Positions 2,276 through 28,933 of a DNA stretch of 36,588 nt are shown piece by piece. Each line of letters opens with the position of its first letter. Positions within the stretch are counted from its first letter, which is position 1. The DNA comes from a virus: IMG/VR virus record IMGVR_UViG_3300018080_000076, positions 1-36,588 of that record. One strand, 5' to 3'. A program made the translations under genes and the position numbers. The notes beneath the pieces were generated by a model. That model was given only the letters and a program-made list of their open reading frames with translations, made no database searches and was not told the origin of the DNA.

Positions 2276-5200
2276 TTATAGTCCTCCCCCTTCAATAATT
2301 TCATTGTCACCGGAACCGCTTTCAATTACCTCATAATCACCGGAACCAGTTTCGATAATATTTTGTATAAATTCAAGGTCGGTCGGAATTAAGGTTAATT
2401 CAATTCCGACCGCGCGTTCGCCAGGTAAAACTTTCTTTTTGGTTATCCAACCGACGCGCGTTTCGCTATCGGTATAAAATTTATCTGAAAAGCTTGCGGC
2501 CGCCATCAATTCTAATTCAATATTTTGTACCGTTATCGGAATTTTGAATTCGGTAATATCTTTTAAGCGTGTCGCCCATTCGATTAAACCTTCCAAATAT
2601 CGGAATGCTGTATTACCGACGCCGCCGGTTCCCGGTGAAAAATTATCGTTATCCTGAAACCATTTTAAATTTGCCTTGAATGGGTTAACTGTCAAAGTCT
2701 GTAAATAAGACGCGTTGCAAACCTCCCAATACCGCTTTGCTAAAACATAATCCGGTATTCCGGCGCAATACGTCGTCCATTTTGGAACGGCGGAACCGTG
2801 AGTATAAACAGTTCCGGACGTGTAAGTTCCCGGCGGCAGCCCTTCCGGATATTCGATATAAACGATATTTGAAGGAACGTTAACGGCGGTAATTTTTGCA
2901 AAATAGAATCCGCCATCGTTCCCCATATATGAAATAGCGTTCCCCGGCTGCGCCCAAAGACTAACCCCGGAAGGAAAAACGAAATAAGCTGTTACCCGGT
3001 CTTCAAGCAGCGCAACGCCATTAAAAAGCCGGGTCGGGTCACTTTCAGATGTAGAAACATAATAACCGGGGAATTCGTCCGCGTCCGTGTTGGTAATTCG
3101 AATCGTTTTATTGAATTTACCTAATCCGGGATTCCAATCATAATTTAACGTGAAATCGTTAAACATCTTTGAAAAAGAAGATTTTTCAAACCGGGTGATT
3201 GAATCTTTTATAATATTTTCATTTTCGTTAAACTCAATCACCGGGTCCGATTGCTCCCGGAAAGCTACCAAACCGCGTTTCCCTTTTCGGGTCGGGTACA
3301 ACGCAACAAAAGATTGTTGCGCTAATTCTTTTAAATAATCTGCGGATGATTTCCGTTCTAATATTTGCCGGCCGACTCTCCAATCTTCGCGGGTCGTGGA
3401 CAAATTCCCATAATTGATATTATCTGAAGTTATACCGTCATAACTTTCAAGCAAATGCCGAAAGCTATTATAAACAGAATTTGTATTTTCGGACCCGAAT
3501 TTTTCCCCCTGAATTTTTACGAAAATATCTTCTTTAATAACGTTGATTGTTTGTGTAGCAACGAAACCAAATTCAAAAACTTTAAACGTTGTAACGTCCA
3601 ATCCGTCCGCAACTTTTTTAATCTCCAATTGTACTTCGAAATTTCGAATTGATTTTGCGTCGTTGAATTCTGAAATAATCGACGAATCAATTTCGAATAA
3701 TTCCGCAATTGCGGACCCGGCAACGGCTTTTCCAAAAGAAGATGCGGGCGCGGACGCTGCGTTTTTTCCTAAACGGAAATAATCTTCTGAAAGCATATTT
3801 AATGTAACATCGCTAAAATCTACCGGATAAGAGCCGCCCGACGTGGTTTGATAACTCTTTGTTCCGTATGGACCAAAACTTTTTACGATAACCGATAATT
3901 CAACATTATCGGAACCGCTTGTATTTATATCGATATAAGGAACCACGAAAAGCCGGTCGAACCCTTCAAGCGGTGTCGGTGGCATCTTAACGTTAAATCT
4001 AACCCGTACGTAATCATTAGCTGAAGCGGGCAGCCATTTAATCACTGCCGTTCCCCCGGAAGTCGGGTCTAAATCGTTATATTCTCCCGGATGCAATGCG
4101 AAATCTTCCGTTGATTCCCCGGCGCTAATCATTCGACGGTCATTCCAATAAATATCTTTGAAGGTTACTTCGCGCGCGACAATTGGAATTAAACGGTTAA
4201 ATTCTCCGGATATATCCAAATCGGAATTTTGAATAACGACCGACGGGTGCGGGAAAAGTCCGACCGCGTCCGTAGTCGCCGAAATAAGTAATTCGGAAAT
4301 TTCGTCGTATTGCCGGGAATCTGAATTGTACCGGGTTAATTCAAGTTTATTTTGGCTATCAACTAAATATTCAGAAATTGGCTTATTTGAAGTCAAATAA
4401 TAAACGTCCATTTTCAAAACTTGGAAAATCCAAGTATCATTGGAAATGAACGCGCCGCCGGCGTCGTAATCGTAATTCGTGTTAAATTCTCCAACCGTAA
4501 CACCGGCCAAAGCATTAGATAAAAACATTCTGGTAATTTTATCGTCGCCAGCGCCGGAAGTAATCGTATTGTCGGTTATTTTTAAACTTTGCTTTTCTTT
4601 TCCTTTTATTACGCGCAAAAAGAATTCGCCGGAATCGCGAAAGTAATTAGCCGGGAAATCAATATTTGGTGTTTTAATATCCAAATAATATTGGTCCGAT
4701 GCTGTGTTATATTCGGTCGCTGCTGCAATATCGATTGAACTACCTTCGACAATGCCTAAAAAGATTACTTCGCTTTTACCGGTAACGTCCATTACTTTTG
4801 ATTTGAATACTTCCCCAATAGAAACCGGGACAACATCCCCGATAAATTCCGGGTCGATTTGCGGGTAACTTTCCGGGTTTAATTCTGCCGGCGGGATTGC
4901 TTTATGAATATTTTTATAATTATCTTCACAGTCAAATTGAAATGTTGTTTCACTGTATTTTGTTTTTGCTACAACGCCACCCCAAACCTGATAAAAAACA
5001 TCATTCAAAACAGTATAAACTTTTACGTTTCGATTAATTAAATAATTTGGGTCGATAGATATTTTATACCAAAACGGGTTACCGTCTGAATTAGTGTTGT
5101 GAATTACGAAAGAACAACCCGACAACGACCCATAATCGCCTTGTACTACGATATCGATTAAACGGACAATCGGCGAAAACTGTTTTAAACTGGTTAATAC

Positions 5201-5467
5201 ACCTTCCGCCCAACGTGTCGTTGATGCGACTTCCCCTTGCGGTAAATGGGAATCGTTATAACCCGGTTGCCCGGTAACCCAACGGAAAAAATATTTCCCT
5301 TGCGCATCGTCGTAATATAGACCGATTGTTTCGTCTGGATTTTCGGCGTTGGTTTCAATTTCAACGGCCATATAAAAAGTAATAGGTGAACCGGTTTTTC
5401 CATCGAACGCCCCGTATTGGCGCATTGGTACGGCGAAAGGTGATTGTTGTGTTTTTCTAATAGTCAT
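2276..5467 (-). CDS. Large tail-tip / baseplate hub-like protein, 1063 aa
   Basis: This is the longest gene. Its place after the tape measure and distal tail genes, its size and its beta-rich composition fit the central tail-tip protein of siphophages (functional counterpart of lambda gpJ or a baseplate hub). The N-terminal half contains repeated beta-sandwich-like stretches. Around residues 690-760 there is a motif-rich segment (ERKSSADYLKELAQQSF, then PTRKGKRGLVAF) like that in tail hub proteins that follow conserved TMP partners. The C-terminus ends in a short imperfect repeat (ETGSGDYEVIE, ESGSGDNEIIE). There is no obvious enzymatic motif. A 72-base gap with a large inverted repeat separates it from the upstream fibre gene. 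Confidence 0.7.
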   Translation of the reverse strand: MTIRKTQQSPFAVPMRQYGAFDGKTGSPITFYMAVEIETNAENPDETIGLYYDDAQGKYFFRWVTGQPGYNDSHLPQGEVASTTRWAEGVLTSLKQFSPIVRLIDIVVQGDYGSLSGCSFVIHNTNSDGNPFWYKISIDPNYLINRNVKVYTVLNDVFYQVWGGVVAKTKYSETTFQFDCEDNYKNIHKAIPPAELNPESYPQIDPEFIGDVVPVSIGEVFKSKVMDVTGKSEVIFLGIVEGSSIDIAAATEYNTASDQYYLDIKTPNIDFPANYFRDSGEFFLRVIKGKEKQSLKITDNTITSGAGDDKITRMFLSNALAGVTVGEFNTNYDYDAGGAFISNDTWIFQVLKMDVYYLTSNKPISEYLVDSQNKLELTRYNSDSRQYDEISELLISATTDAVGLFPHPSVVIQNSDLDISGEFNRLIPIVAREVTFKDIYWNDRRMISAGESTEDFALHPGEYNDLDPTSGGTAVIKWLPASANDYVRVRFNVKMPPTPLEGFDRLFVVPYIDINTSGSDNVELSVIVKSFGPYGTKSYQTTSGGSYPVDFSDVTLNMLSEDYFRLGKNAASAPASSFGKAVAGSAIAELFEIDSSIISEFNDAKSIRNFEVQLEIKKVADGLDVTTFKVFEFGFVATQTINVIKEDIFVKIQGEKFGSENTNSVYNSFRHLLESYDGITSDNINYGNLSTTREDWRVGRQILERKSSADYLKELAQQSFVALYPTRKGKRGLVAFREQSDPVIEFNENENIIKDSITRFEKSSFSKMFNDFTLNYDWNPGLGKFNKTIRITNTDADEFPGYYVSTSESDPTRLFNGVALLEDRVTAYFVFPSGVSLWAQPGNAISYMGNDGGFYFAKITAVNVPSNIVYIEYPEGLPPGTYTSGTVYTHGSAVPKWTTYCAGIPDYVLAKRYWEVCNASYLQTLTVNPFKANLKWFQDNDNFSPGTGGVGNTAFRYLEGLIEWATRLKDITEFKIPITVQNIELELMAAASFSDKFYTDSETRVGWITKKKVLPGERAVGIELTLIPTDLEFIQNIIETGSGDYEVIESGSGDNEIIEGGGL

Positions 5468-5539: not shown

Positions 5540-7615
5540 TTAAAGTATTACAAATTCGTCTCCGTCCGCGGGCGCTTCGGTTAAAGAATCTTCGAAAGAT
5601 ATTTTCTTCGTCGTTCCGTCGTAATCGGATATTATAGCGCCTTGCCGCCTTAAATTACCGGTAACAAATTTTACAACTAATCCGTTATAGTGGTCGTCGT
5701 CCAATTCGGTTAAATTGGTTGTCATATCGTTAACGGTTAAAACGCCTGATTTTGCGGTCGAATTTTCTATTGTATCGCTTGACTTCTGTAAACCGGTAAC
5801 CCCGGCGGTTACTCCATCAATACGAACAATATTAACATCAATTACGCCGGCCGTGTTTTGGTCCGTAACGGATTTAATATCGTCTATTTCTTTTGCTTTG
5901 ATATCTTGTCCGGAACCAACGGCCGTCAAATTTAAAGCGTCTTTCGTGCCGTAAGACAAAACGCGGATTCCGTATCCGTCCGCGCTGCCGGAAGTAATGG
6001 TAATTCCATTTGAATTCTCAGCAGCGCCGCCGTTGATATTTACCGCATCTTTGCCGCCCGCTCCAAATATGTTTAAGCCGATTCCATCCGTAGTTGAAAC
6101 GTTTATTCCGTTTCCGTCTGTTGTTCCGCCTTGAATCCTAACACCTATTCCGGCCGTTCCGCCGTGAACGTCGATTCCGTTTCCGGCGCCTTGACTTGCA
6201 ATATCTATTCCGTCGCCACCGCTTGCACCGCCAGTTATTTGAACGGCCGGGGCAAAACCATTACCGTTAATTACCAAACCTTCGGAAGCATTACCGCCGT
6301 CAATGCGTACGCCCGCGCCGGTCGTATCACCAACAACCCGGATTCCATATCCACCCGAACCGGACCCAATATAAACCGAATCACCGGCCGGGTTAAAAAT
6401 ATCAAGTTTCTTTAAATTTAACGTCGCATTATTCCCGGCGGTTAATTCTCCATCGATGGAAATTAAATTAGCATCGATAACAGTTCCGGAATAACTTTCC
6501 CATGAACCGGAACCGTGGGCAGCACTTAAAATAGTTGAAACATTGTTTGGTATTCCTTCAACGTCTTCGTTATCGTGAACGGTAGCGTCTCCCGGATTAG
6601 TTATTTTCCAATCACCATAAACCCAAATTTCAAGATTAGCGCCGGCAGTATTTAAATTTAATTTACCGCGCCCGGTTAAAATCATTTTGGTCGCGGAAAC
6701 ACCGCCGCCAAATTGATTTAGTTTTATATCACCTTCCCAACCCAAAACGGAAAAATTACCGCCGTTGTTGTCGTTATCCAAAACAGCTTCAACAGAAAAA
6801 TAATGCGGTCGACAGTTTATTAACTGGCAACCGTTTTGCATAGTTAACGAACCTTCAATAAACGAATTGAAAATTCGGTGGTCAAAATACAAACTAGCAT
6901 TATCAAAAACGCAATTATTGAAGACGGAACCGTTATTACCGGTTCCGGCTTCCGTCCCGGCAATCCGCGCATATTCAATATAGGACGAATCCATTTGTTT
7001 TGTATTTATATCTAATTCGTAATATGGTTTTCCGGTTATTCTTTTATTGTTGAAATTGTCAGATAGTGTTATTGTTGAATCCGCCCGCGCAACATTTACG
7101 GCATTTATTTTTGTCGATGAAATTAAACTGATAACATCAGACCACGTGTTACAAGGATTCGTATCAATGCCGTTTTTATCTTTAACACTTCCAGCCGCGC
7201 CGCTTGCATCATTAAACCATATATACCCGTGGTAACCGCCTTTTTTATTTTCGTCTTCAAAATCAATTAATTCAAAAAGTCGATGGGATTTTATATCGTC
7301 TTCGTCGTCATATATAGAAACGGCAACCCGGTCGTAAGTACCAGTAAAAGCGGCGTCGGGAATATCAACACGCATTAAAAGACTTGCGGGTGATATACTA
7401 GAACTAGACATGAAAATTCCTTTATTGTCCGTGTGTCCAGTTGAGATTGACGCAAGCGCAGACATTGCTGATTCAGAAACACTAAAAGCTGTTGGGTCTG
7501 AAGACAATTGTTTTGTATATGATAAACGGAAAGCGTCTATTGATACGCCGCCTTCACTTACAGCGAAAAGTTTTGAAACATCTTCAGAATTTTTTACAAT
7601 CTTTTCGATTTCCAT
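5540..7615 (-). CDS. Tail fibre / tailspike-like beta-solenoid protein, 691 aa
   Basis: The ATG at 7615 overlaps the stop of the LamG gene (TAATG) and follows GGGGG. Residues about 415-565 hold some 13 short repeats of the type GIRV.G, GVRIDGG, AVNINGG spaced about 11 residues apart, the pattern of a right-handed beta-solenoid shaft. The C-terminal about 60 residues (DDHYNGLVVKFVTG, then EAPADGDEFVIL) match a module common at the ends of phage adhesins. Known family logic makes this a receptor-binding or structural fibre at the tail tip. No hydrolase active site can be identified by eye, so enzymatic spike activity is open. Confidence 0.75.
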   Translation of the reverse strand: MEIEKIVKNSEDVSKLFAVSEGGVSIDAFRLSYTKQLSSDPTAFSVSESAMSALASISTGHTDNKGIFMSSSSISPASLLMRVDIPDAAFTGTYDRVAVSIYDDEDDIKSHRLFELIDFEDENKKGGYHGYIWFNDASGAAGSVKDKNGIDTNPCNTWSDVISLISSTKINAVNVARADSTITLSDNFNNKRITGKPYYELDINTKQMDSSYIEYARIAGTEAGTGNNGSVFNNCVFDNASLYFDHRIFNSFIEGSLTMQNGCQLINCRPHYFSVEAVLDNDNNGGNFSVLGWEGDIKLNQFGGGVSATKMILTGRGKLNLNTAGANLEIWVYGDWKITNPGDATVHDNEDVEGIPNNVSTILSAAHGSGSWESYSGTVIDANLISIDGELTAGNNATLNLKKLDIFNPAGDSVYIGSGSGGYGIRVVGDTTGAGVRIDGGNASEGLVINGNGFAPAVQITGGASGGDGIDIASQGAGNGIDVHGGTAGIGVRIQGGTTDGNGINVSTTDGIGLNIFGAGGKDAVNINGGAAENSNGITITSGSADGYGIRVLSYGTKDALNLTAVGSGQDIKAKEIDDIKSVTDQNTAGVIDVNIVRIDGVTAGVTGLQKSSDTIENSTAKSGVLTVNDMTTNLTELDDDHYNGLVVKFVTGNLRRQGAIISDYDGTTKKISFEDSLTEAPADGDEFVIL

Positions 7616-9840
7616 TATTGAAAACCCCCTAAGAAATTTTCGTTAAAATTTCCCTTTAAATTTGGTGTACCCTCTTGCGGAATCCATAAATCCGACGGGT
7701 CTTTAATCATTTTAGAATTAGTATAAACCCAATCCGCGGACCGGTAAACAGTATGCAAGCGGTATTCGTCTATAGCTTTGTTCATGTATGTAGAAAACAA
7801 TAAATTAGCCATAAAACGGCCGGTATTCCCAATATCAGTATTTAAAGTTTGATTTGAACCTGATAAATTACTTTCCGAAACGCGTAAACCATCGATATAA
7901 ACTTCAAAACTATCTGTTCGATTACCAACGCCGTCAAAAGTTGCTAAAACGTGCGTCCAACCGGTGCGAATTTGTGTATCGCCCCAAAAATGAAAAGAAA
8001 AAGCAATACCGATTCCATAACTTCTTTGAGCCAATGTAATTCTTTCCCCGGCGTCGTCTTTACCATATCCTACGAACGGGTCTTCGGACGCTCCATCTGA
8101 TAATTTTGCGAAAATTTCAATTGTTCGCGCGGAGCTTCCGACCGGATAATTAACGGCTTGCGTATTTTGTATAAAATCGTTTGTACCGTCGCCCTGTTGA
8201 CCACCGTCAACAATTCCGGAAACCCTAGACGGTACTTTCGCAGCGTCGCCGCCGCCGCCGGTCGCGTGGTTTTCGTTAGACGTACTGTCTTTATACTCTC
8301 CGGTTGTACCGTTTCCCGTTTCGTTAAAATGTTTTACGTCGGCAAAATTCGGCCATACGTTAAATTGTCCATAAGTAGAATCTTTTATTCTTGGGGTTTC
8401 GTCTTCATCGTCAACAACCCACAAAAAAGCAGTATCACCGCCGCCGGCAGATAAGTTAGTTTTAAACCAAATTGCGGCTTCGTCGTCACCTTCCCCGCTA
8501 GTTAATCGTTCAACTTCTATTGGAATTTCCGTCGTTCCGGCTTCATCGCTTGACATTCGAACCATACCGGGCGCACCACCGGAACCGGTAATATTAGCCC
8601 ATAAACCGCCATTACGAATAACCGATTTATGGTTTAATTGTTCGGTCTTTACTAAACAACTAAAATCAGATTGGGAAGATGGAAGTATTTTTTTTTGGCT
8701 TGTAAGTGCAGCAACTAATGTGTAATCATCGGGAAAAATATTCCCAACATTTACGGACGTTTGAGGAACGGAAAAAAGGGAAGCGTTGAAATACATATTA
8801 TATTCAGCTTTTACCCAAGCCGCCGATATTTCATTTTTAAATATCTTTACTTGCGCCATACGACCGTTTAAATCCCGGTCGCTTGCATTACCTTTCCGCG
8901 CACCTAAAGCAGCATCATTCGTGTTCGTAAGTGCTGTTAACCCGGTGTTGCCTTGTACGCTGGTATCGTCTACGGAATCGATATAAATTGAAATGCCGGT
9001 ACCATTAGTTGAACCGTCGTAAATAAAAGCGATATGGTGAGTATCATCATCTGTTAAATTTGTTGCCCCGTCCGCGTAAATATCATTAGTGCCATTATCC
9101 AGCATATAACGCAAATAATCCCCGGAATCTTGCATCATAGTTTCCCAACCTTCATAATCTGAACCGGTACCCCTTCGGGAAACTATAGATTGAGTTGAAC
9201 CGGTACCATTCATATTTAAAATTAAAGTGATACACCACGGTTCATTATAAACCGCTTGTAAACTGGAATCGTCGCCCAAATTAAACCGGTCGTCGCTCCC
9301 GTCTAAATATTGACCCAAAAATGGAATATTTGGGTTTGATTGCGCGGAAGTTTCAAAATCAAAACTTTGTGGTCCGGCAATTCGCGTTCCGTCGTTTTGA
9401 TTTGATGTTTGGTCTAATGCGTTCCCGCCGGTATCTTGATTTAACGGCCATGCACCGACAACGTCAGAATGATAAACGCCATCGCTTCCATAAGTCGCAT
9501 CTGTCCGGGCCGGTTGCGATTCTTCACTTTTCGAATACCATAAATAAACGGTTGTATTTGAAGCAGAATTAACCGTCGGTACTCTAATTTCCAATAATGC
9601 TTTTTGGTTTGTTTGGTCCCAACGAATAACATTTAAATTCAATGGGACCGAACCGGCAGAATCAGACGACGCGCGAAGGTCGCCGCCATCATTTAACGCT
9701 TTATGAACACCCGACCAAATTTCCGAAGGTAAACTATCGTGCGTAACCGATAAAATATAATCCGTTAAATTACTATCAACGTAAGTCAACGACTTAATTT
9801 CTATCGGTGTTTTTCGATGCCAACCAGAAGGAAATGTCAT
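7615..9840 (-). CDS. Tandem DUF2341-LamG (concanavalin A-like) adhesin, 741 aa
   Basis: The start ATG at 9840 follows AAAGGTG. The protein is two copies of the same layout. The first (about residues 1-350) begins with a DUF2341-like segment (WHRKTPIEI, then TVYLWYSKSEES), then a LamG/jellyroll stretch with FNLGDDSSLQ, ITLILNMNG and GRMAQVKIFKN. The second (about 365-741) has TAFLWVVDDEDE and AINDYR-like repeats such as IDEYRLHTVYRSADWV. LamG folds bind carbohydrate or protein ligands, so a host-recognition role at the tail tip is a fair inference. It sits between small tail genes and the beta-solenoid fibre. Confidence 0.75.
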   Translation of the reverse strand: MTFPSGWHRKTPIEIKSLTYVDSNLTDYILSVTHDSLPSEIWSGVHKALNDGGDLRASSDSAGSVPLNLNVIRWDQTNQKALLEIRVPTVNSASNTTVYLWYSKSEESQPARTDATYGSDGVYHSDVVGAWPLNQDTGGNALDQTSNQNDGTRIAGPQSFDFETSAQSNPNIPFLGQYLDGSDDRFNLGDDSSLQAVYNEPWCITLILNMNGTGSTQSIVSRRGTGSDYEGWETMMQDSGDYLRYMLDNGTNDIYADGATNLTDDDTHHIAFIYDGSTNGTGISIYIDSVDDTSVQGNTGLTALTNTNDAALGARKGNASDRDLNGRMAQVKIFKNEISAAWVKAEYNMYFNASLFSVPQTSVNVGNIFPDDYTLVAALTSQKKILPSSQSDFSCLVKTEQLNHKSVIRNGGLWANITGSGGAPGMVRMSSDEAGTTEIPIEVERLTSGEGDDEAAIWFKTNLSAGGGDTAFLWVVDDEDETPRIKDSTYGQFNVWPNFADVKHFNETGNGTTGEYKDSTSNENHATGGGGDAAKVPSRVSGIVDGGQQGDGTNDFIQNTQAVNYPVGSSARTIEIFAKLSDGASEDPFVGYGKDDAGERITLAQRSYGIGIAFSFHFWGDTQIRTGWTHVLATFDGVGNRTDSFEVYIDGLRVSESNLSGSNQTLNTDIGNTGRFMANLLFSTYMNKAIDEYRLHTVYRSADWVYTNSKMIKDPSDLWIPQEGTPNLKGNFNENFLGGFQ

Positions 9841-19464: not shown

Positions 19465-20046
19465 TTAGATAAATTTAAATTGCGGGTTTTTAGTAATCCA
19501 CTGCCGGACGCTTTCTTCGGTCGGGAATTTGTCTTTTGAAAAAACAAGCGATTGTACGACCGTTCCGTCGGCGTGTTCTGCGGTATATTTAAAAAAATCG
19601 GTATTTTCCAAAAGGGGAAAATCCGGGTCCGCGGGTAATTCCGCGCCGTATTCGATAACCGAATCGTCCGGGTCCGCGGATAGTTGAATTTTTCCAAGTC
19701 CGGGGACCGCCGGTTGTGCGCCGCCTAAAAATCCGATATGGTTTATTTGAAAGGTTTTCGGGTTAACAGAAATAGAAGTGTTTTTAAACATCTTCTTATC
19801 AATTGCGGTTTTCATTTCCCCGACAACGTCTTTAAATTCTGCCCAAAGTCCCTTTCCTTCACGCCAAAGCCGGGAAACCCAACCGAAAGCCGGGGAATCC
19901 GTCCGGGGATGTCCAACAACCATTGGTATTTCCCGATTGGAAGGATTGAAAGCGGAAATCATTTTATCAACGTCGGATTCGGTCCATTTGCGGGTACGTC
20001 CCGCGGAATCGGTCCATTTGCCAGCTTTGAAAACTTCTTTTTTCAT
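19465..20046 (-). CDS. Mu gpI-like prohead protease, 193 aa
   Basis: IPMVVGHPRTDSPAFGWV (about residues 40-57) and the block FKNTSISVNPKTFQINHIGF followed by LGGAQPAVPGL match Mu gpI-type head maturation proteases. The C-terminal motif FSKDKFPTEESVRQWI is a short module seen at the ends of such proteases. Family members cleave scaffold and themselves during capsid maturation. At 193 residues it is shorter than Mu gpI (which includes scaffold Z), consistent with the scaffold being a separate gene here. The start overlaps the stop of the 52-aa gene (ATGA). Confidence 0.82.
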   Translation of the reverse strand: MKKEVFKAGKWTDSAGRTRKWTESDVDKMISAFNPSNREIPMVVGHPRTDSPAFGWVSRLWREGKGLWAEFKDVVGEMKTAIDKKMFKNTSISVNPKTFQINHIGFLGGAQPAVPGLGKIQLSADPDDSVIEYGAELPADPDFPLLENTDFFKYTAEHADGTVVQSLVFSKDKFPTEESVRQWITKNPQFKFI

Positions 20047-21085: not shown

Positions 21086-21342
21086 GCCGTTTTTTTATTC
21101 AAGTAGTTACAAACCGTCGCGCGGGATACACCAAGTTCCGCGGCTATCTTTGAGCCGTTCCGTCCGTTATAATTTTGTAAGATATATCTTTTAATCATTT
21201 TCGGCGGCAATACCGAAGGAAAGCGAACAACGGAGCCGGCCATTACTTCCATTAATTTTCTTGTTTGATAAACGCCGATTGTTTCCGCAATCAATTTTAA
21301 CGATTCAGGTAATTCTTCTATATCAAAATCAATTAATTTCAA
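21082..21342 (-). CDS. Mor/C-like transcription activator, 86 aa
   Basis: The C-terminal half (PPKMIKRYILQNYNGRNGSK, then IAAELGVSRATVCNYLNKK) matches the C-terminal HTH of Mu Mor/C activators; the N-terminal half is helical like their dimerisation part. Mor and C switch on middle and late genes in Mu. Here the gene lies at the 3' end of the long minus transcript and 900 bases from the candidate late promoter at 20237-20266, so control of that promoter is a reasonable inference. Its ATG overlaps the stop of the gpG-like gene (ATGA). Confidence 0.72.
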   Translation of the reverse strand: MKLIDFDIEELPESLKLIAETIGVYQTRKLMEVMAGSVVRFPSVLPPKMIKRYILQNYNGRNGSKIAAELGVSRATVCNYLNKKTA

Positions 21343-21773
21343 AGAAACCCTTTGGTTAAAAAACTGATTACTTCGTCGCGCATTTCTTCAATTGTTTCGT
21401 CTGGAATTGAAAGAAACGGGCGCGCGGGAAGATTATTTTTTTCATATCCGAATTGATGCGCGGCGGCATATTCTTTGTTCGTAAATACGACGGCTTCATT
21501 TTCGGTCGCTTGGGATTGAATAGAATTAACCAATTGTCCGGAAACTTGAAGAATTTTTCCCGGCCATTTGTTTTTCCGGGCGCGGGCGTCTTTAGTCTTC
21601 TGCTTCAAATCTTGCCATGCCGGCCGCCCTTCTTGTTCGAAGTTCTCTTCAACTGCATCGTGCATTATTCCAGATAAACTTTCCATTAATGGCCGGCGGT
21701 TTTCCGCCCTGTTTTTAAGTTGATTAATCGCGGAAGTAAACGACCGGTCTTTTATTTTTACTCGAATCGGCAT
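21339..21773 (-). CDS. Mu gpG-like virion morphogenesis protein, 144 aa
   Basis: The sequence carries the hallmark order of the Mu virion morphogenesis (tail completion) family: a basic N-terminus, then RPAWQDLKQKTKDAR, ILQVSGQLVNSI, AVVFTNKEYAAAHQFGY and LPARPFLSIPDE. Family members act in head-tail completion. Position in the Mu-type head module agrees, but an unusual glycosyltransferase gene separates it from the MuF gene. It starts immediately after that gene's stop. Confidence 0.9.
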   Translation of the reverse strand: MPIRVKIKDRSFTSAINQLKNRAENRRPLMESLSGIMHDAVEENFEQEGRPAWQDLKQKTKDARARKNKWPGKILQVSGQLVNSIQSQATENEAVVFTNKEYAAAHQFGYEKNNLPARPFLSIPDETIEEMRDEVISFLTKGFL

Positions 21774-22937
21774 TTAATCCCCTTCCGAATCTAATTTATA
21801 ATCCGGGTATAAATCCCGCATTACGTTTAACAGTTCTAAACATTCCCGATTACGACCCATTTTCATTAATAAACGCGTCGCATAATGAAAAGCATATAAA
21901 CGGCATTGGTCAAACCTTAAAACGTGCGAATTGATTAATTTTGGAATCTTTAAAACCTGATTATAACATTCGACCGCTTTTTCAAAATTTTCTAAGGTTT
22001 CGTAAACCTTCCCCAATTGAAAAACGTTTTCGATGTTGTCGGGAAATCTTTTATAAGCTTCAATATACCATTTTCGGGCGTTTTCATAATCATTTAACAA
22101 ATGGTAACCATTCGCAATTCGATTTGGAATCGTTAAATAAGCGTCCCGGTTTATTTTATCTAAATTTTCAATTTTGTTTGCAGAATGAAAATAATTCAAA
22201 CCCTCTTTATAATTCCCTAATATATAGTGTGAATCACCTTGAGCCATTAACAAAGAATAATCAGATTTTGCGCCGTCTTCTTGCGCCATTAATCGAAGAT
22301 TTCGAATTTGTTTTAGTTTCCGTTTTTCCGGGTTATCATACCCGGTATGGGTTAAAAATATTTTAGTATAAACAACATACAATCCGAGTTTTGCAATACT
22401 GTAAACGCTTTGTTCGTGAATACGTCTTTCGAAATAAATTAACGGATGATTCGGAAACATTCGAATTTGCATAAATTCCGCTTCCGGTAATCCAAATTGA
22501 TTTGTGTTTTTAATTGTGAAAGAAAATGCGCGGTCCAACGGTGCGGATTTTAAAATTTTTATTTGTGCTGCCATTTCAGGCGAAACCACGTCGTCCGCGT
22601 CTAACCATAAATTCCAAGCGCAACAGGATTTTTCAAGTGTTGAATTTCGGGCGGCGGAAAAATCGTCTTTCCATTCTGTTTGATACCATTGTATTTTTGC
22701 GCCTTCGTTGGCATGGAATGTTTTTATAATATCCAATGTTGCATCTGTGGACCCTGTGTCGTTTATAACAATTTGGTCCGCAAACAATAAAGCAGATTTG
22801 ATAGCGGAATAAATTTTATCCGCTTCATCTTTTACAATCATACAAACGCAAACAGTCCCGGCCGGGTGTCCAGTTTGAAGCGGGCTTTTTATTGTTCCGA
22901 ACGCGTCGGCGATATTTTGCGGTAACCCGTCTTTCAT
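21774..22937 (-). CDS. GT2 family glycosyltransferase with TPR repeats, 387 aa
   Basis: Residues about 30-180 are a GT-A type glycosyltransferase: VCMIVKDEAD, then NDTGSTDATL at 59-68, DFSAARN, and the metal/nucleotide-binding WLDADD at 111-116. Residues about 230-370 hold TPR-like helical repeats (KEGLNYFHSANKI, ARKWYIEAYKRFPDN, AVECYNQVLKI). No signal peptide or membrane helix, so it acts in the cytoplasm. GT2-TPR proteins transfer sugar from a nucleotide-sugar to protein or glycan acceptors. It lies inside the head gene cluster and is co-translated with it, suggesting glycosylation of a virion protein; modification of host surface glycans is the alternative. Confidence 0.88.
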   Translation of the reverse strand: MKDGLPQNIADAFGTIKSPLQTGHPAGTVCVCMIVKDEADKIYSAIKSALLFADQIVINDTGSTDATLDIIKTFHANEGAKIQWYQTEWKDDFSAARNSTLEKSCCAWNLWLDADDVVSPEMAAQIKILKSAPLDRAFSFTIKNTNQFGLPEAEFMQIRMFPNHPLIYFERRIHEQSVYSIAKLGLYVVYTKIFLTHTGYDNPEKRKLKQIRNLRLMAQEDGAKSDYSLLMAQGDSHYILGNYKEGLNYFHSANKIENLDKINRDAYLTIPNRIANGYHLLNDYENARKWYIEAYKRFPDNIENVFQLGKVYETLENFEKAVECYNQVLKIPKLINSHVLRFDQCRLYAFHYATRLLMKMGRNRECLELLNVMRDLYPDYKLDSEGD

Positions 22938-23107
22938 TGTTCCGGCTCAAATTGTATTCCGTTATCGCCGGGATACGGTTTATCGTGTTTTACTTCGCTA
23001 TGATAAATCGGGTCAGGTATTCCCTTTGGAAAAGCGCGGCAAATCCTTTTTCCTTTTTCCCAAATTTTATTTTTACAAATACCGCATTGCGGTTCTGGAT
23101 AGTCCAT
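22934..23107 (-). CDS. Small Cys-containing conserved phage protein, 57 aa
   Basis: The ATG follows AAGGGGTAATA. It contains CGICKNK, then CRAFPKGIPDPI and HDKPYPGDNGIQFEP, a combination widespread in small phage and prophage proteins. Three Cys and one or two His could bind zinc or another metal. No function is established that I can name. The stop overlaps the glycosyltransferase start (ATGA), so both are co-translated. Confidence 0.75.
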   Translation of the reverse strand: MDYPEPQCGICKNKIWEKGKRICRAFPKGIPDPIYHSEVKHDKPYPGDNGIQFEPEQ

Positions 23108-23109
23108 TA

Positions 23110-24645
23110 TTACCCCTTCGTGTTTTTCAATTCCTTTTCCATTATCCGGCCGATTTTATCCGCAATTGACCGCGCTTTTTTGTTATTGATATATTCCGCC
23201 CAACCTTCCGCGATTGTTTCCGGCGCTCCGCCATCGACCCCGTATTTACTTAAACCATCTTTTATTTGTTTGGTAGTCAATCCGGAATAATACCCGGTAA
23301 AAGAAGGTAACTTCCGGAAGTTTAAACGATAATCTATAATATGCCCGAATTCGTGGTCGACAACCGCTTTTATTGAATCTGTTCCGGGCGGATGCCAACC
23401 GGATTTAGTGTCCCGCTGTAAAGATTCTAAAAATGTTTTAGAATTCTTTCCAAATTTACTATTAACAGAAATTCCCGCCGCGCCTTCATACCCGGACCGA
23501 CCGGCGGACGCCAACGCATATTCCCCGGAACTACGACCAATTATTCGACGCAAAAAACCTTTCGCGTCTTTCATCATTTGTGATTCTGATTTTTTAATCC
23601 CTAATCGTTCCAATTTTTCTTTCCAGCGCGCATATTCTTTATCCAAATTTGCTTTGATAAAATGCCGTTGTCGTTCCTGATTAGACCCTAAAAATTTCAT
23701 TTGTTTTCGAATTTGTGGGTACCGGGATAAATGGTTAAATGCAGATTCATTAATCGCGTTAGCGGTCCCAACGTCCAAACCTTTATAACGGACGGTATCC
23801 GCTAAATTATTGTCCGTCGCCCATTTTTCCGCAGCCTTTACCGTCTTTTGTGGTTGATACTTTTTCGCAACATCACCGGCTTGTGTCGGTTTTACGGGCG
23901 GCGGTGGTTTTAACATTTTACCCGCTTTCCATATATCCGCGTCGTAATCCTTCCGGTCCGGCTGCCAATTCTTTGTTCCGGGATTCCCGGAAAAGCCTTT
24001 ATCGGGTCGAATAATCTTCCCGTTCTTTCCCCTTGGTTTTCCTTTGCTTAATCCGCCGCGTCGGTCTGCTTGAATGTTTGTTAACGCCCGCAGCCGGCAG
24101 CGGCATCTATACCCATTAGGCGGCGCGTAGGCTGCCCAAAATGGGTCGTCAACCGGGCGGCGCTGCCCGTTTAATTCCAGATGCGACGCGCGGGTCGAAC
24201 CGTCAACGATTGCAACATATTCTAATATTTGCCGGCGGTTTTTATTTGCTTCAAAAGATTGCCAACGTCCGGCATTATACGCGGATTGCATATTGGTTTC
24301 ATAAATGATTTTAAGCCGGTACGGCGCGCCTAATTGCTTTATTCTGCCGTTTGGTAATCGTTCCATTTTTGGCGCCCAACCCTTAGCAGCCAAACGGGGT
24401 AATAATTCTTTTTTGAATTTATCGAACGTTATTCCGTCTTTTAAAGCGCGGGAAATTCCTTTCCGCATATCCTGTAAAATATCCATTTGCGCGACTTTTG
24501 CGACGGTAAAAGCTAAATGATTATTCATTTGCAATTGTTCGCGCCAATCCCAAGTGATTTTATTTCCCTTGGATTCGAAATATTTTATAGCCTTTTCGGG
24601 CGGAAGTCCGATTGCGTAATTTAAATTTATATCACTTTTTGGCAT
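23110..24645 (-). CDS. MuF/SPP1 gp7-type minor head protein fused to a metallopeptidase-like domain, 511 aa
   Basis: Residues about 1-190 are a MuF head-morphogenesis domain (YETNMQSAYNAGRWQSF, then TRASHLELNGQ and PNGYRCRCRL). A Lys/Pro-rich linker follows to about 260. The C-terminal domain has the zincin motif HEFGH (431-435, in KAVVDHEFGHIIDYRL) and a downstream acidic helix ETIAEGWAEY (476-485) that could supply the third zinc ligand. MuF proteins sit inside the head near the portal, and polymorphic-toxin MuF proteins with C-terminal enzyme domains are known. Delivery of a protease into the host with the DNA is an inference; a role in maturation is the alternative. It starts right after the portal stop. 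Confidence 0.88.
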   Translation of the reverse strand: MPKSDINLNYAIGLPPEKAIKYFESKGNKITWDWREQLQMNNHLAFTVAKVAQMDILQDMRKGISRALKDGITFDKFKKELLPRLAAKGWAPKMERLPNGRIKQLGAPYRLKIIYETNMQSAYNAGRWQSFEANKNRRQILEYVAIVDGSTRASHLELNGQRRPVDDPFWAAYAPPNGYRCRCRLRALTNIQADRRGGLSKGKPRGKNGKIIRPDKGFSGNPGTKNWQPDRKDYDADIWKAGKMLKPPPPVKPTQAGDVAKKYQPQKTVKAAEKWATDNNLADTVRYKGLDVGTANAINESAFNHLSRYPQIRKQMKFLGSNQERQRHFIKANLDKEYARWKEKLERLGIKKSESQMMKDAKGFLRRIIGRSSGEYALASAGRSGYEGAAGISVNSKFGKNSKTFLESLQRDTKSGWHPPGTDSIKAVVDHEFGHIIDYRLNFRKLPSFTGYYSGLTTKQIKDGLSKYGVDGGAPETIAEGWAEYINNKKARSIADKIGRIMEKELKNTKG

Positions 24646-26139
24646 TTATTCAGCGTTTCCGGCAATCCGTCCGTACGCGTTCGACGCGAAAATTGCGCGT
24701 TTTATCATTTCTTCCCCGGATTCGAAAGACATTTCCGGGAATGTTGTTAACAATTCGTCCAATACTTCCGAATATGAATTCGACTTATTTACAAGGTCAA
24801 TGATTGGTTTTAAAATCCCTTGCGCTTGCCGGGTTAATTCTTCCGCGGAAAGATTGTTAACCGCTTCGTCTATTTCTCTTTGGTCCGGATACGTTGAAAA
24901 CATGGATAATTTAAAACGGGAATTTTCGGACGGTTCGCCGCCAGTATTACCGGGATTGCCACCGGACGCCGGGTCGCCGATTTGAAAATCTTTTTCGTCG
25001 ATATTGTAAGTAGTTGAAATATACGACGGTTCAAATTTTACCCCGATATCAGATAACAATTTATCCCGTTCCGCTTGCGATTTGTTAATCGTCTTCGGTT
25101 CGTACATTTTGAAATACGGCGCGTTCGGTTCTGCAAAATTTATTTCGTTAATCCAAGAAATAAGCTGATTTGCTGTCCGTTCAACTTTGATAACGTCCGC
25201 GTCGCGGCGTTCGTCTTTTGTCCCCTGTTGGGTCTTTGCTGCCGCATAACTGCCGGTGTCCTGAATTTCGGTTGTTAACGTTTCGCCCAAATATATTTTG
25301 GAAATTTCGCTGTTGAAAAATTCCGCCAATCCTTGAAATATTTCCGAAGACCGCTTCCCGTCCGGTTCTTTGAATTCGACCGAATCGTCATCCGGAATAA
25401 GTAATACCCCGTCTTGAACCATTTCTGAAAGCTTTTCCAACAATTCATCCGCTTCCGTTTCGTCTATCGTGGACCGCACCTTCGCCACAATCCAAGGCAT
25501 AGCGTATTTTTCAATAAATACATTCCACCATTTAAAAGCGTTTCGCTTAAAGGTTACCGGCCAATAGCATTTCGATAAAAGCGCGTCCCCATACGGGTTA
25601 TCGTAAGTCGGACGATTCCGGGGAAGTAAAATTTTATAATCAGGGATTTTTTCCCCAATTGTCATATTTTTAGTTGATAAATACCGCAATCGGTTTTCTT
25701 CGTCGAATTGAAACCAGCGCGCCGGCTTTGCTACCAAATCGACCGGAACGATAAAATTATCTTTTGCTTTCCAAACAACCTCAATTGGGGACATTCCCCA
25801 ATCGTTCGCCATTAATACGGCATCAATAAACGCGTCCATATCCAAATTATCGAAAATCTGTTCTACGGCTTTAAACTGCCGGGAAGACCCCTTCCCGCGT
25901 TCAATTCCAAAATCCATATCTTTTACCGCAGCCGACCGGGATTCCCGCACCGCTGTTAAATGTCCGTCGGTTAAAAGGTCTTTGTACGCTTCATGCTGCG
26001 ATAAGCCGAGTTTTTCTAATACCCGGTCCGGGTTTAAAAGCGCCCCAATAGAAGTAAAAGCGTCGATTGCGGTTTCGCGGGACGCTATTATTTTAGTAGT
26101 AACATTTTTTCCGGTTTTTTTGTTTTTGTCTTCGGGCAT
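24646..26139 (-). CDS. Mu gp29-like portal protein (DUF935), 497 aa
   Basis: The start follows AAGGGGAAAGA. The N-terminal sequence and blocks such as LLTDGHLTAVRESRSAAV, NDWGMSPIEVVWK and KRNAFKWWNVFIEKYAMPW, with GETLTTEIQDTGSYAAAK, are characteristic of the DUF935 family, the Mu gp29-type portal. It should form the dodecameric ring through which DNA enters and leaves. Length is normal for the family. A Gly/Asn-rich flexible stretch lies near residue 390. The order terminase, portal, MuF is the usual one. Confidence 0.92.
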   Translation of the reverse strand: MPEDKNKKTGKNVTTKIIASRETAIDAFTSIGALLNPDRVLEKLGLSQHEAYKDLLTDGHLTAVRESRSAAVKDMDFGIERGKGSSRQFKAVEQIFDNLDMDAFIDAVLMANDWGMSPIEVVWKAKDNFIVPVDLVAKPARWFQFDEENRLRYLSTKNMTIGEKIPDYKILLPRNRPTYDNPYGDALLSKCYWPVTFKRNAFKWWNVFIEKYAMPWIVAKVRSTIDETEADELLEKLSEMVQDGVLLIPDDDSVEFKEPDGKRSSEIFQGLAEFFNSEISKIYLGETLTTEIQDTGSYAAAKTQQGTKDERRDADVIKVERTANQLISWINEINFAEPNAPYFKMYEPKTINKSQAERDKLLSDIGVKFEPSYISTTYNIDEKDFQIGDPASGGNPGNTGGEPSENSRFKLSMFSTYPDQREIDEAVNNLSAEELTRQAQGILKPIIDLVNKSNSYSEVLDELLTTFPEMSFESGEEMIKRAIFASNAYGRIAGNAE

Positions 26140-26166
26140 TCTTTCCCCTTGAGTTAATATCTACCC

Positions 26167-26418
26167 TTAAAATAAACTAAACGCAAACGGGAGAAATATT
26201 TTTTTAAAGAATTTTTTCAAACCGTATTTTATCAATATCAATTCATTACTTTTTAAACGTGGTTTAATTTTAATCTTTATCGTGTTTTTTGCCGGTCTGG
26301 CATTTATTAGGGCGATATCCATAGAAAGCTTTTTCGCTTGCTCTGCGTTTAATACGCGTTCCCCCGGATTTAATACCGCCGGTTCGCCTTTATGTTTAAC
26401 TATTCCGCCGTGTTCCAT
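26167..26418 (-). CDS. Small protein with a stand-alone TMP-end-like motif, 83 aa
   Basis: The ATG at 26418 is preferred to an upstream TTG because GGGAAAA precedes it. Residues 1-27 (MEHGGIVKHKGEPAVLNPGE, then RVLNAEQAK) resemble the GG..DTVPA.LTPGE.VLN module found at the C-terminus of many tape measures, including the one in this genome. The rest is basic, ending in a hydrophobic stretch (KKIFLPFAFSLF) that may be membrane-associated. Similar short proteins occur next to head genes in other phages; their role is unknown to me. Confidence 0.6.
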   Translation of the reverse strand: MEHGGIVKHKGEPAVLNPGERVLNAEQAKKLSMDIALINARPAKNTIKIKIKPRLKSNELILIKYGLKKFFKKIFLPFAFSLF

Positions 26419-26599
26419 TTTTCCCAAACCTTTCAATTATGGATTTTCTTTTCCGGTTCATAATTGATTGCATTTTTATTAAAACCCTCAAAGTTTCGAA
26501 CCCTTCCCGGTAATTGCATTTGTTTATCATCCTGTAAGCATCACAACCGTTTTTGTTTTTCGGTTCGTTTCGCTGGCACAAAAAGTTTTCACATTTCAT
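26396..26599 (-). CDS. Small Cys-rich protein, 67 aa (second of a tandem pair)
   Basis: Begins MKCENFLCQRNEPKNKNGCD and continues with AYRMINKCNYREGF: four Cys in the order C-x4-C-x10-C-x8-C. The same order of Cys, Tyr and Arg occurs in the gene directly upstream (26589-26762), so the two are probably diverged duplicates. The C-terminal half is basic (NRKRKSIIERFGK). A zinc-binding, nucleic-acid-related role is possible. Starts overlap with the upstream stop, suggesting coupling; a ribosome-binding site is weak (AAAGAAA). Confidence 0.6.
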   Translation of the reverse strand: MKCENFLCQRNEPKNKNGCDAYRMINKCNYREGFETLRVLIKMQSIMNRKRKSIIERFGKNGTRRNS

Positions 26600-26762
26600 T
26601 TTTTGTGTTTCTTTTTTGTAATTGTTTCCAGTTCTCCAACCATAACCGGCGAACGTATAATTTTCGTCTTTCGCAATTTGTGATATTTCGGTACCGTTCA
26701 CACCCGGAATTATATTTGTGGTCCCGGCAATCACAATATTTATTCGGACATTTTCCCAACAT
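26589..26762 (-). CDS. Small Cys-rich protein, 57 aa (first of a tandem pair)
   Basis: The ATG lies one base after the terminase stop. Sequence: MLGKCPNKYCDCRDHKYNSG, then CERYRNITNCERRK, followed by a basic, Trp-containing tail. Five Cys (C5, C10, C12, C21, C30) suggest a small zinc-binding fold. Similar to the next gene (26396-26599). The alternative longer frame over this region (to 26734) starts in the wrong phase for this Cys pattern and is not supported. Confidence 0.6.
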   Translation of the reverse strand: MLGKCPNKYCDCRDHKYNSGCERYRNITNCERRKLYVRRLWLENWKQLQKRNTKNEM

Positions 26763-26763
26763 T

Positions 26764-28236
26764 TTAAAACCTTGATTTTGATTTATGCTTCCTCGAGAAT
26801 ACCCGCGGTTTACTTGCCGGCTGCACTATTAGCCAGTTTATCAATTGGCTGAAAGCGTCCGGAATATCTTTGTTTTTAATATCGGGGAAACCGGCCATAA
26901 TTTCAACAAATTTCGAAACCCACGGCGCATTTAACGGTAAATAAACGTTTCCCGCTTCCGCGTACGGTGTCGCCGCGTGTGCGCGCGCTTCTTTGTCGCC
27001 TTCCGGCTTAATCGGAATAACTGGAATTGTGGTTTCTTTTCTCAATACTTGGCATAAGACAATTCCCGACGCTTTATCTTCTATTAAAACGGCGTGTGGA
27101 TTATCCCGGCCGGCTTCTATCCTGATTTGTGCGTCTAATTGTGGGAATTCCATTCCTTCGGAAAATATACCGGTTAAATACAATCCATTTTCATATTGAT
27201 TCGCGAAAATAGCGGCGTTGTCGGCCGCTTCTTTCCCTTTTTTAAATGCGGTATCCCACGAATGAATTTTTCGTAATATTCGGCCTTGCGGCAATTCTTT
27301 ATAATACCGCCAATATTCCCGCTTCCAAATTGTCCCTTCTATTGCGGCCGGGTGTTGTAATACTTGACCAGCGAATTGCTTTCCTCCCATTTGTACGCGC
27401 ATATCCTCCAAAACGTCGGAATCCATACGTTTAACATCCATTACACCGTTTTTGTAAAATTTTTTTAACTCCGGGGGGGACACATTATCAAGCGTTTTAC
27501 ATTCTCCCGGTATGCAAATATGCGTGATATTTTTTCTTCTCTCTAATAGATGGCCGGTCGGGTCGTCAGCAGCTAATCGCTGCATTATTAAAACTGTTAA
27601 GGTTAATTTCTTGGAAATTTTCCGGGTCGATAACGTCCCGTCGAACCAATCGTTTGCAACTTTCTTTTCCCCTTCGGAAGCCGCTTTCTTTGGGTTTATC
27701 GGGTCGTCAATCATAATAACGTGACCATGAAACCCGGTTATATTACCGCCGGCACTGCAAGTTTTACGGCCGCCGCCCTTCGTATTCCAATATTCGGTCT
27801 TTGTATCCATATCGATTTTAAATTCGATTAGGTCGGGCCAAAGCCGGTTGAACCGTTCCGATTTTAAAATATCTCGGGATTTAACAGACATTCCGTTTGC
27901 TAATGTTGATTCATATGACCCGGTAATAAAACGCAATCCGGGCGATTTAACCCAAGACCACGCTGGAAACATTATTGAACAAATTGTCGATTTTGTGGTA
28001 CCGGGGGGAATGTTTATAATTAAATCGTTTTGCGGTTTTTCTGATAAAAGATTTTCAAGCGCTAATTGTAATCGATTACATAAATACGGTAAATGCCAGT
28101 TTTCAACGTATTCGTCGGGAATTATTACGTCCCAAAAATATTTTACAAATTCATAAAAAGAGTTTTCACAATCCCGCCGTTTTAATTCCAGTCGGGCGCG
28201 GGCTAATGCTTCAAGGGATTTACGGTCTAACGCCAT
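26764..28236 (-). CDS. terL: Large terminase subunit, 490 aa
   Basis: Start chosen at 28236 (MALDRKSLEALAR); the upstream in-frame extension reads through the overlapping 45-aa membrane gene. N-terminal ATPase: Walker A-like PPGTTKST at 77-84, Walker B VIMIDD at 173-178. C-terminal RNase H-like nuclease: SWDTA with D328, IEDKASG with E386/D387, and DIPDAF with D460, the three acidic positions expected. Length is normal. It packages DNA into the head through the portal encoded next. No adjacent small subunit is obvious; see the HTH gene at 20336. Confidence 0.95.
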   Translation of the reverse strand: MALDRKSLEALARARLELKRRDCENSFYEFVKYFWDVIIPDEYVENWHLPYLCNRLQLALENLLSEKPQNDLIINIPPGTTKSTICSIMFPAWSWVKSPGLRFITGSYESTLANGMSVKSRDILKSERFNRLWPDLIEFKIDMDTKTEYWNTKGGGRKTCSAGGNITGFHGHVIMIDDPINPKKAASEGEKKVANDWFDGTLSTRKISKKLTLTVLIMQRLAADDPTGHLLERRKNITHICIPGECKTLDNVSPPELKKFYKNGVMDVKRMDSDVLEDMRVQMGGKQFAGQVLQHPAAIEGTIWKREYWRYYKELPQGRILRKIHSWDTAFKKGKEAADNAAIFANQYENGLYLTGIFSEGMEFPQLDAQIRIEAGRDNPHAVLIEDKASGIVLCQVLRKETTIPVIPIKPEGDKEARAHAATPYAEAGNVYLPLNAPWVSKFVEIMAGFPDIKNKDIPDAFSQLINWLIVQPASKPRVFSRKHKSKSRF

Positions 28237-28364
28237 AAACCGCCGATATAAAAACCAATTAAGGTGAAAAGTGTTCCGAGAATTAATCCGACAACATATC
28301 CAAACATTAAAGCCGGTTCGCAACGGTCAACCGCGGCGGGTTTGGGCCGAAAAGGGAATTTCAT
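28227..28364 (-). CDS. Small membrane protein, 45 aa, overlapping terL start
   Basis: The ATG shares ATGA with the preceding stop. The N-terminus is basic (MKFPFRPKPAAVDR) and residues about 19-42 are one hydrophobic segment (MFGYVVGLILGTLFTLIGFY). The last codons overlap the terminase start (10 bases), which would couple the two. A lysis role (holin-like) or a membrane anchor is possible; sequence does not decide. Confidence 0.6.
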   Translation of the reverse strand: MKFPFRPKPAAVDRCEPALMFGYVVGLILGTLFTLIGFYIGGLWR

Positions 28365-28549
28365 TTACCCTTACCCGGCCGCGGATGCCGTCTTCGAAAT
28401 GTACGTAAATATTGCGGCCATACACAATAATCTAAATCGAATGGAACGTTTTTAACTTTCTTTTGATTGCAGAAATCAAAATCGACACAATAGCCGCAGC
28501 GCGATTCGTGCTTTCGCGGCTGCCCGGCTATTAGTCGAAAAGGTATCAT
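28361..28549 (-). CDS. Small Cys-rich protein, 62 aa
   Basis: Overlaps its neighbours on both sides by ATGA. Contains CGYCVDFDFC and a later single Cys (DLDYCVWPQ), then a very basic end (YLRTFRRRHPRPGKGK). The Cys arrangement suggests a small metal-binding protein, one of many in this operon. Function not recognised. Confidence 0.6.
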   Translation of the reverse strand: MIPFRLIAGQPRKHESRCGYCVDFDFCNQKKVKNVPFDLDYCVWPQYLRTFRRRHPRPGKGK

Positions 28550-28824
28550 TTAGAAATGTTTTTAATTGCTTCATCCGCGGATAAAAGTTTTTGCGAATTA
28601 AACTTGGTTCGCAGTTCCAAACGTTGTTTTTTAATGACCGGGTTTTCCGCGCGCTTCTTTGCATCGTCGAAACATTTATCGTACAAATCACGCAATGTAA
28701 GGTCTATAATAATAAACGTTTCCCGATTACCGACTTTCCGGGCGTAAACAAAATTTCCGGTTTCATTCAACCCGACGAAATACATATTGCAGCCGGGTAA
28801 TTTATTTTTTTCATCAATTGGCAT
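28546..28824 (-). CDS. Hypothetical protein, 92 aa
   Basis: The ATG follows TTGGGGGAATA, a good ribosome-binding site. The N-terminal half is beta-like (NMYFVGLNETGNFVYARKVG, then FIIIDLTLRDLYDK); the C-terminal half is charged and helical. Its place two genes before the terminase would suit a small terminase subunit, but there is no HTH and no known pattern, so I leave it unassigned. Confidence 0.65.
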   Translation of the reverse strand: MPIDEKNKLPGCNMYFVGLNETGNFVYARKVGNRETFIIIDLTLRDLYDKCFDDAKKRAENPVIKKQRLELRTKFNSQKLLSADEAIKNISK

Positions 28825-28933
28825 TATTCCCCCAAAAAATTAAAAGTGAAATGATAACAGCTATTGCGGAATATACGATAAAAAGCCGCGCTTTTGCTTC
28901 CGCGTCTTCGGGCGGCTTTTCTTCGTAATACAT
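28814..28933 (-). CDS. Small single-span membrane protein, 39 aa, beside the DUF5675 gene
   Basis: MYYEEKPPEDAEAKARLF is followed by one hydrophobic segment of about 17 residues (IVYSAIAVIISLLIF) and ends WGNNAN. The ATG lies one base after the DUF5675 stop and the end overlaps the next gene by 11 bases. If DUF5675 is the lysis enzyme, this could be a pinholin or holin partner; that is inference from position only. Confidence 0.55.
   Translation of the reverse strand: MYYEEKPPEDAEAKARLFIVYSAIAVIISLLIFWGNNAN

What the first reader, a model, noticed from the sequence alone, without database searches (positions are those of the whole stretch)
23110..24645. MuF head protein with a C-terminal HEFGH metallopeptidase-like domain
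After a normal MuF domain the protein has a linker and a domain with HEFGH (431-435) and a downstream ETIAEGWAEY helix, the spacing of a zincin. MuF proteins lie in the virion near the portal and could be ejected with DNA. Known polymorphic MuF toxins carry other enzyme domains, so this could be an injected protease that acts on a host or defence protein, or an internal maturation enzyme. It is the strongest candidate for a less described system here.
Basis: partly seen in the sequence, partly recalled or inferred. Interest (0 to 1): 0.65.

Follow-up and report, generated by a model that had tools for sequence, protein, structure and literature searches.

The report
Phage head protein with built-in protease
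A minor head protein of an uncultivated phage carries a well-preserved zinc-protease domain, swapped as a cassette among unrelated phages and followed by a tiny cysteine-rich protein gene; it is probably carried in the particle and delivered with the DNA, a known kind of arrangement, but the protease subtype and its recurrent small companion are little described.

Summary
AlphaFold2 gives pLDDT 96 for that domain. Its fold is that of the M34 family: anthrax lethal factor's catalytic domain (Z 13.1) and Pro-Pro endopeptidases (Z ~9), with the next unrelated fold at Z 2.2. The zinc ligands are most likely H431, H435 and E476, with E432 as base and Y468 as the catalytic tyrosine.

The domain is a mobile cassette. 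The nearest MuF relatives (51% identical) lack it, and 106 of 153 pairs of fusion proteins resemble each other only in the protease half. MuF-metallopeptidase fusions were already reported (Jamet 2017), so this is a new member of a known kind. The most likely role is a protease packaged in the head and ejected with the DNA to cut a host protein. Ejection, activity and target are inferred.

New here: a 57-aa CxxC...C...H protein gene starts 2 nt after the MuF stop. Its family follows MuF genes carrying zincin, JAMM-like, ADP-ribosyltransferase or zeta-kinase domains, so it is unlikely to be a simple cognate immunity protein.

The parts
23110..24645 (-). MuF-zincin fusion gene, 511 aa plus stop
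   Evidence: ORF and translation; L002, another contig, is 99.985% identical over 6489 bp
24091..24471 (-). MuF domain, residues 59-185
   Evidence: PF04233 E=1.2e-22; phrog_220 'minor head protein and DNA pilot' E=3.8e-76 over 4-320
23866..24087 (-). linker, residues 187-260, with KPPPPVKP at the point where the short relatives end (..EKLKP)
23113..23865 (-). M34-type (LF/PPEP-fold) zincin domain, residues 261-511
   Evidence: AF2 pLDDT 96.1, pTM 0.92; LF catalytic domain Z 13.1, PPEPs Z ~9; phrog_324 E=6.6e-22
23341..23355 (-). HEFGH: H431 and H435 (zinc), E432 (base)
23242..23244 (-). Y468, predicted catalytic tyrosine
   Evidence: invariant in 28; 33 residues after H435, as Tyr190 after His157 in PPEP-3
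23191..23220 (-). ETIAEGWAEY helix; E476 predicted third zinc ligand, E480 second shell
22934..23107 (-). 57-aa CxxC...C.AFP.GIP...H...GDNGI.FE companion protein; starts 2 nt after the MuF stop and overlaps the next gene by ATGA
   Evidence: phrog_33375 E=3.2e-7, no Pfam match
24646..26139 (-). Mu-type portal protein
   Evidence: PF06074 E=1.6e-90
26764..28323 (-). terminase large subunit
   Evidence: phrog_38 E=2e-91
21774..22937 (-). GT2 glycosyltransferase with TPR repeats, in the head operon (context, not claimed as part of the system)
   Evidence: PF00535 and TPR matches
21339..21773 (-). tail completion/Neck1 protein
   Evidence: phrog_26 E=6.5e-32
19465..20046 (-). separate head maturation protease (context)
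   Evidence: phrog_976 E=2e-38

Best explanation
The protein is a MuF effector. Its N-terminal MuF domain places a few copies inside the head at the portal, and its C-terminal domain is an active zinc endopeptidase of the M34 type (H431, H435, E476 bind zinc; E432 is the base; Y468 stabilises the transition state). It is packaged and most likely ejected with the DNA to cut a host protein early in infection, for counter-defence or host takeover. The 57-aa companion made directly after it is probably a general helper or silencer of MuF effectors in the producing cell. Shown: sequence, predicted fold, conserved active site, cassette exchange, gene order. Inferred: packaging, ejection, catalysis, target and the companion's role.
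For: MuF domain next to a Mu-type portal and terminase. High-confidence M34 fold with a large gap to unrelated folds. PPEP-3 active-site spacing is matched: His157-Tyr190 is 33 residues and H435-Y468 is 33; Tyr190-Glu197 is 7, in most relatives 7 and here 8. Active site kept in 41 of 41 proteins found without using the motif. Exchange between MuF lineages: 38 pairs similar in both halves, 106 only in the protease half, 0 only in the MuF half; nearest MuFs lack the domain. Same gene order in the cultured Flavobacterium phage lotta8-2, which is lytic (PMC7077304). Two other MuF toxins, Apk2 and Bxa, are enzymatically active (PMC11699363). A separate head maturation protease is present.
Against: I found no virion proteomics, ejection assay or activity data for any member examined here. 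The model carries no metal and I could not measure ligand distances. Sequence similarity to solved M34 enzymes is weak (Pfam ATLF best E 0.0026 in relatives, none for P0001), and Foldseek alone gave no match under 0.001 in the PDB. The host is unknown.
Confidence: 0.6

Rival explanations
1. The zincin works inside the particle: it trims itself, the portal complex or other head proteins during assembly, or cuts its own proline-rich linker to free the protease from MuF, as proposed for peptidase domains in polyvalent proteins.
For: Iyer et al. 2017 discuss autoprocessing by zincins in polyvalent proteins. This linker has PPPP at the fusion point, and PPEP enzymes of the same fold cut Pro-Pro bonds.
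Against: The window has its own head maturation protease and scaffold. Close MuF relatives work without the domain. A PP pair lies in the last 45 linker residues of only a minority of the fusions.
Confidence: 0.2
2. The domain is an antibacterial polymorphic toxin used in competition between lysogens and non-lysogens, with the 57-aa protein as its cognate immunity protein.
For: Jamet et al. [quoted passage not shown] Tandem companion copies in L035 and L074 resemble immunity arrays.
Against: The same companion family follows zincin, JAMM-like, ART and zeta-kinase effectors. It also accompanies the zincin in a lytic phage, and several MuF-zincin genes have none (L008, L016, L076).
Confidence: 0.15
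3. The zincin domain is a structural or DNA-pilot extension and its enzyme activity is irrelevant.
For: phrog_220 and phrog_324 are annotated only as head or pilot proteins.
Against: Catalytic residues are conserved across deep divergence, and the same domain occurs in short proteins without MuF (L057, L059, L079).
Confidence: 0.05

Closest known systems
MuF polymorphic toxins (Jamet et al. 2017, PMC5576092)
   Same: MuF head protein with a C-terminal enzyme domain, in the head operon next to the portal gene, followed by a small ORF; 20% of the 191 reported had metallopeptidase domains
   Different: Their MuF toxins were only in temperate phages; this family also occurs in a lytic cultured phage, and the small ORF here is shared across effector classes
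M34-fold zincins: anthrax lethal factor catalytic domain (named only, sequence not fetched) and Pro-Pro endopeptidases PPEP-1/2/3
   Same: Fold (Z 13.1 and ~9), HExxH, Tyr and Glu spacing
   Different: 12-21% identity in structural alignments; fused to a phage head protein, with no secretion signal or host-targeting domain seen; substrate unknown
Zincin-like MPTases of polyvalent proteins (Iyer et al. 2017, PMC5512222)
   Same: Zincins in phage virion effectors, with predicted autoprocessing or effector roles
   Different: No Pfam match for P0001 beyond Phage_Mu_F, so no tie to the Pfam MPTase-PolyVal model was seen
PHROG 324 head morphogenesis proteins; MuF-like minor capsid protein of Mycobacterium phage Rope (BFVD)
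   Same: Share the domain by profile (E=6.6e-22) or by predicted fold (Foldseek E=2.6e-5)
   Different: Annotated only as head or minor capsid proteins

Membership tests
MuF head proteins (PF04233) | significant match to the MuF profile | tested here: met
   E=1.2e-22, 81 bits against a cut-off of 29.6
MuF head proteins (PF04233) | gene directly after the portal gene | tested here: met
   portal 24646-26139 abuts it on the same strand
MuF polymorphic toxins | exchangeable C-terminal enzyme domain | tested here: met
   106 of 153 pairs similar only in the C-half; nearest MuFs lack it
MuF polymorphic toxins | small ORF directly downstream | tested here: met
   57-aa ORF 2 nt downstream
MuF polymorphic toxins | that ORF is a cognate immunity protein | tested here: inconclusive
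   family shared across effector classes argues against it; no binding test
MuF polymorphic toxins | carried by a temperate phage | tested here: inconclusive
   no integrase or repressor among the window ORFs scanned, but not all were scanned and the record may be a fragment
MuF polymorphic toxins | toxic or enzymatic activity delivered to cells | not testable with these tools
   needs experiments
M34 (LF/PPEP) zincins | fold | tested here: met
   Z 13.1 and ~9, next unrelated fold Z 2.2
M34 (LF/PPEP) zincins | HExxH plus downstream Glu ligand plus Tyr at the right spacing | tested here: met
M34 (LF/PPEP) zincins | sequence profile match above the curated cut-off (Pfam ATLF) | tested here: not met
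   no hit for P0001; 5 of 18 relatives hit weakly, best E 0.0026. So it is M34-like, not filed as a Pfam ATLF member
Pro-Pro endopeptidases | cleavage between two prolines | not testable with these tools
   needs a peptide assay

The most novel reading that the evidence does not exclude
The CxxC...C...H protein (phrog_33375-like) is a dedicated companion of head-packaged phage effectors that works across unrelated enzyme classes: a zinc-binding silencer, loading chaperone or ejection factor that lets phages swap effector domains freely, with orphan chromosomal copies possibly acting as host protection.
Probability: 0.35. Interest if true: 0.65.

Novelty: new member of a known kind. Interest (0 to 1): 0.45.

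Why it matters
Targets of virion-carried phage proteases are largely unknown. Assigning this clade to the LF/PPEP fold, with exact predicted catalytic residues and a related cultured phage (Flavobacterium phage lotta8 on strain LMO8), makes the question testable. The shared small companion could also serve as a marker for finding MuF effector genes whose C-terminal domains are unrecognised.

Tried and rejected
Sequence search of the PDB with P0001 alone gave only chance hits. tblastn of the domain against 50,697 phage records gave nothing at E<=0.1, or E<=0.01 with three relatives; only a consensus query reached weak hits, including lotta8. The portal query found only the near-identical contig. 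Proline-linker self-cleavage was considered, but the motif is not conserved. A simple cognate-immunity role for the small protein was considered and judged unlikely because of its cross-class association. Its AF2 model (pLDDT 81, pTM 0.54) matched no solved fold; this shows nothing about the fold being new. A related-loci scan with the small-protein alignment failed for lack of conserved stretches, so a DNA pattern was used. Lethal factor was named as a fold match only; its sequence was not fetched or aligned.

Full report
WHAT IS THERE. The window is an IMG/VR virus record of 36,588 bases. A second contig, L002, repeats 22354-28842 at 99.985% identity. The ORF is on the minus strand, 511 aa. 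It follows a Mu-type portal (PF06074, E=1.6e-90) and a terminase (phrog_38). Downstream lie a 57-aa ORF, a GT2-TPR glycosyltransferase, a Neck1/tail-completion protein, a late-activator-like protein, a head maturation protease, scaffold and major head protein. The MuF domain covers residues 59-185.

THE DOMAIN. Residues 261-511 match no Pfam family but do match PHROG 324 over nearly their whole length (E=6.6e-22). A pattern scan of viral contigs and an alignment-based scan of genome contigs gave a family of 28 aligned members. Genome-contig hits came from Alphaproteobacteria, Rhodocyclus, Lachnospiraceae, other Bacillota, Bacteroidales, Spirochaetales, Chloroflexi and the archaeon Methanolobus. 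It is uncommon: 12 of 391 genomes in the class of the Lachnospiraceae MAG and 4 of 398 in the phylum of Rhodocyclus, several of these weak. It sits on MuF proteins, on a portal-MuF fusion (L055), in three copies on one long protein (L061/L062), and in short proteins without MuF (L057, L059, L079).

FOLD AND ACTIVE SITE. AlphaFold2 with the 28-sequence alignment gave pLDDT 96.1 and pTM 0.92. Among solved structures, VIA-align gave Z 13.1 (rmsd 3.7, 177 aligned) for the lethal factor catalytic region and Z 8-9 for Pro-Pro endopeptidases. The next unrelated rows are at Z 2.2. The Foldseek E-values were weak (best 0.038), but the top rows were all these two families. A profile search of PDB sequences independently ranked lethal factor first (E=2.3e-4) and listed PPEPs, with some chance hits between. 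In PPEP-3 the zinc site is His153, His157 and Glu197, with Glu154 as base and Tyr190 as catalytic residue (PMC12828418). H435-Y468 is 33 residues, as His157-Tyr190. Tyr-to-Glu is 7 in PPEP-3 and in most relatives, and 8 here because of one extra residue. E476 is therefore the best candidate for the third ligand. E480, one turn on, is also conserved. E484 is not invariant. The first set was fetched with an HEFGH pattern, so its invariance is biased; the unbiased set gave 41 of 41 with HExxH.

EXCHANGE. The closest MuF proteins (L003, L004; 51% identical) end at ..EKLKP, exactly where this protein continues into KPPPPVKP and the protease. Among 18 fusions, 38 of 153 pairs are similar in both halves, 106 only in the protease half and none only in the MuF half (E<1e-5). 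The domain moves as a cassette.

THE SMALL COMPANION. A 57-aa gene (22934-23107) starts 2 nt after the MuF stop and overlaps the glycosyltransferase start by ATGA. It has invariant C8, C11, C23 and H41 in 38 aligned members. Homologues follow MuF-zincin genes in many loci, with about five copies in L035 and two in L074. Of 64 distinct upstream genes, motif classes were 46 zincin-type, 7 JAMM-like, 5 ADP-ribosyltransferase-like, 1 zeta kinase and 5 unassigned. Pfam on 66 upstream proteins, some truncated, found Phage_Mu_F in 32, ATLF in 6, ADP-ribosyltransferase families in several and Zeta_toxin in 1. MuF genes are common in Pseudomonadota (34 of 150 genomes) but the companion is rare there: 1 of 398, next to a MuF gene with a related extension. 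In Bacteroidota it occurs in 13 of 296 genomes, mostly away from MuF genes. It is thus neither a general MuF partner nor specific to one enzyme. The motif classes are rough and rest on regular expressions.

CULTURED RELATIVE. Flavobacterium phage lotta8-2 has portal, MuF-zincin (516 aa, HEFGH, Tyr-to-Glu 7), companion and gpG-like gene in the same order. Its genus, Pippivirus, is described among the lytic phages (PMC7077304). Brevibacillus phage Jenst has a HEIGH protein annotated as low-copy virion protein with a companion two genes on.

INTERPRETATION. Jamet et al. 2017 already reported MuF toxins with metallopeptidase domains (20% of 191), proposed delivery with DNA and suggested counter-defence or a lysogeny role. 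They reported small ORFs after 89.4% of MuF toxin genes and read these as immunity genes. The present protein fits that kind. Presence in a lytic phage favours counter-defence or host takeover over a lysogeny decision, by inference. The shared companion speaks against one-to-one immunity for this small ORF family. Whether the protease is ejected, what it cuts and what the companion does remain untested.

Noticed in passing
window 22934-23107 (-): 57-aa CxxC...C...H protein directly after the MuF-zincin gene; its family follows MuF genes with several different effector domains, sometimes in tandem copies (L035, L074).
   Followed up: yes
window 21774-22937 (-): A GT2 glycosyltransferase with TPR repeats lies inside the head-gene operon, overlapping the stop of the small gene; short-MuF relatives L003/L004 go straight to the gpG-like gene.
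   Followed up: partly
L061:836-5233 (+) and L062:836-6475 (+): Long phage proteins with three M34-like zincin copies.
   Followed up: no
L103, L113, L115, L142, L145, L152, L158: Proteins before the small companion gene (MuF-like motif seen in most) end in a JAMM-like HNHP...S..D domain, a possible deconjugase effector.
   Followed up: partly
L226, L227, L229 and other Bacteroidota loci: Orphan chromosomal copies of the small CxxC protein in GC-rich genomes, away from phage genes.
   Followed up: partly
window 2276-5467, 5540-7615, 7615-9840 (-): Three large proteins downstream of the tape measure gene with no PHROG match.
   Followed up: no
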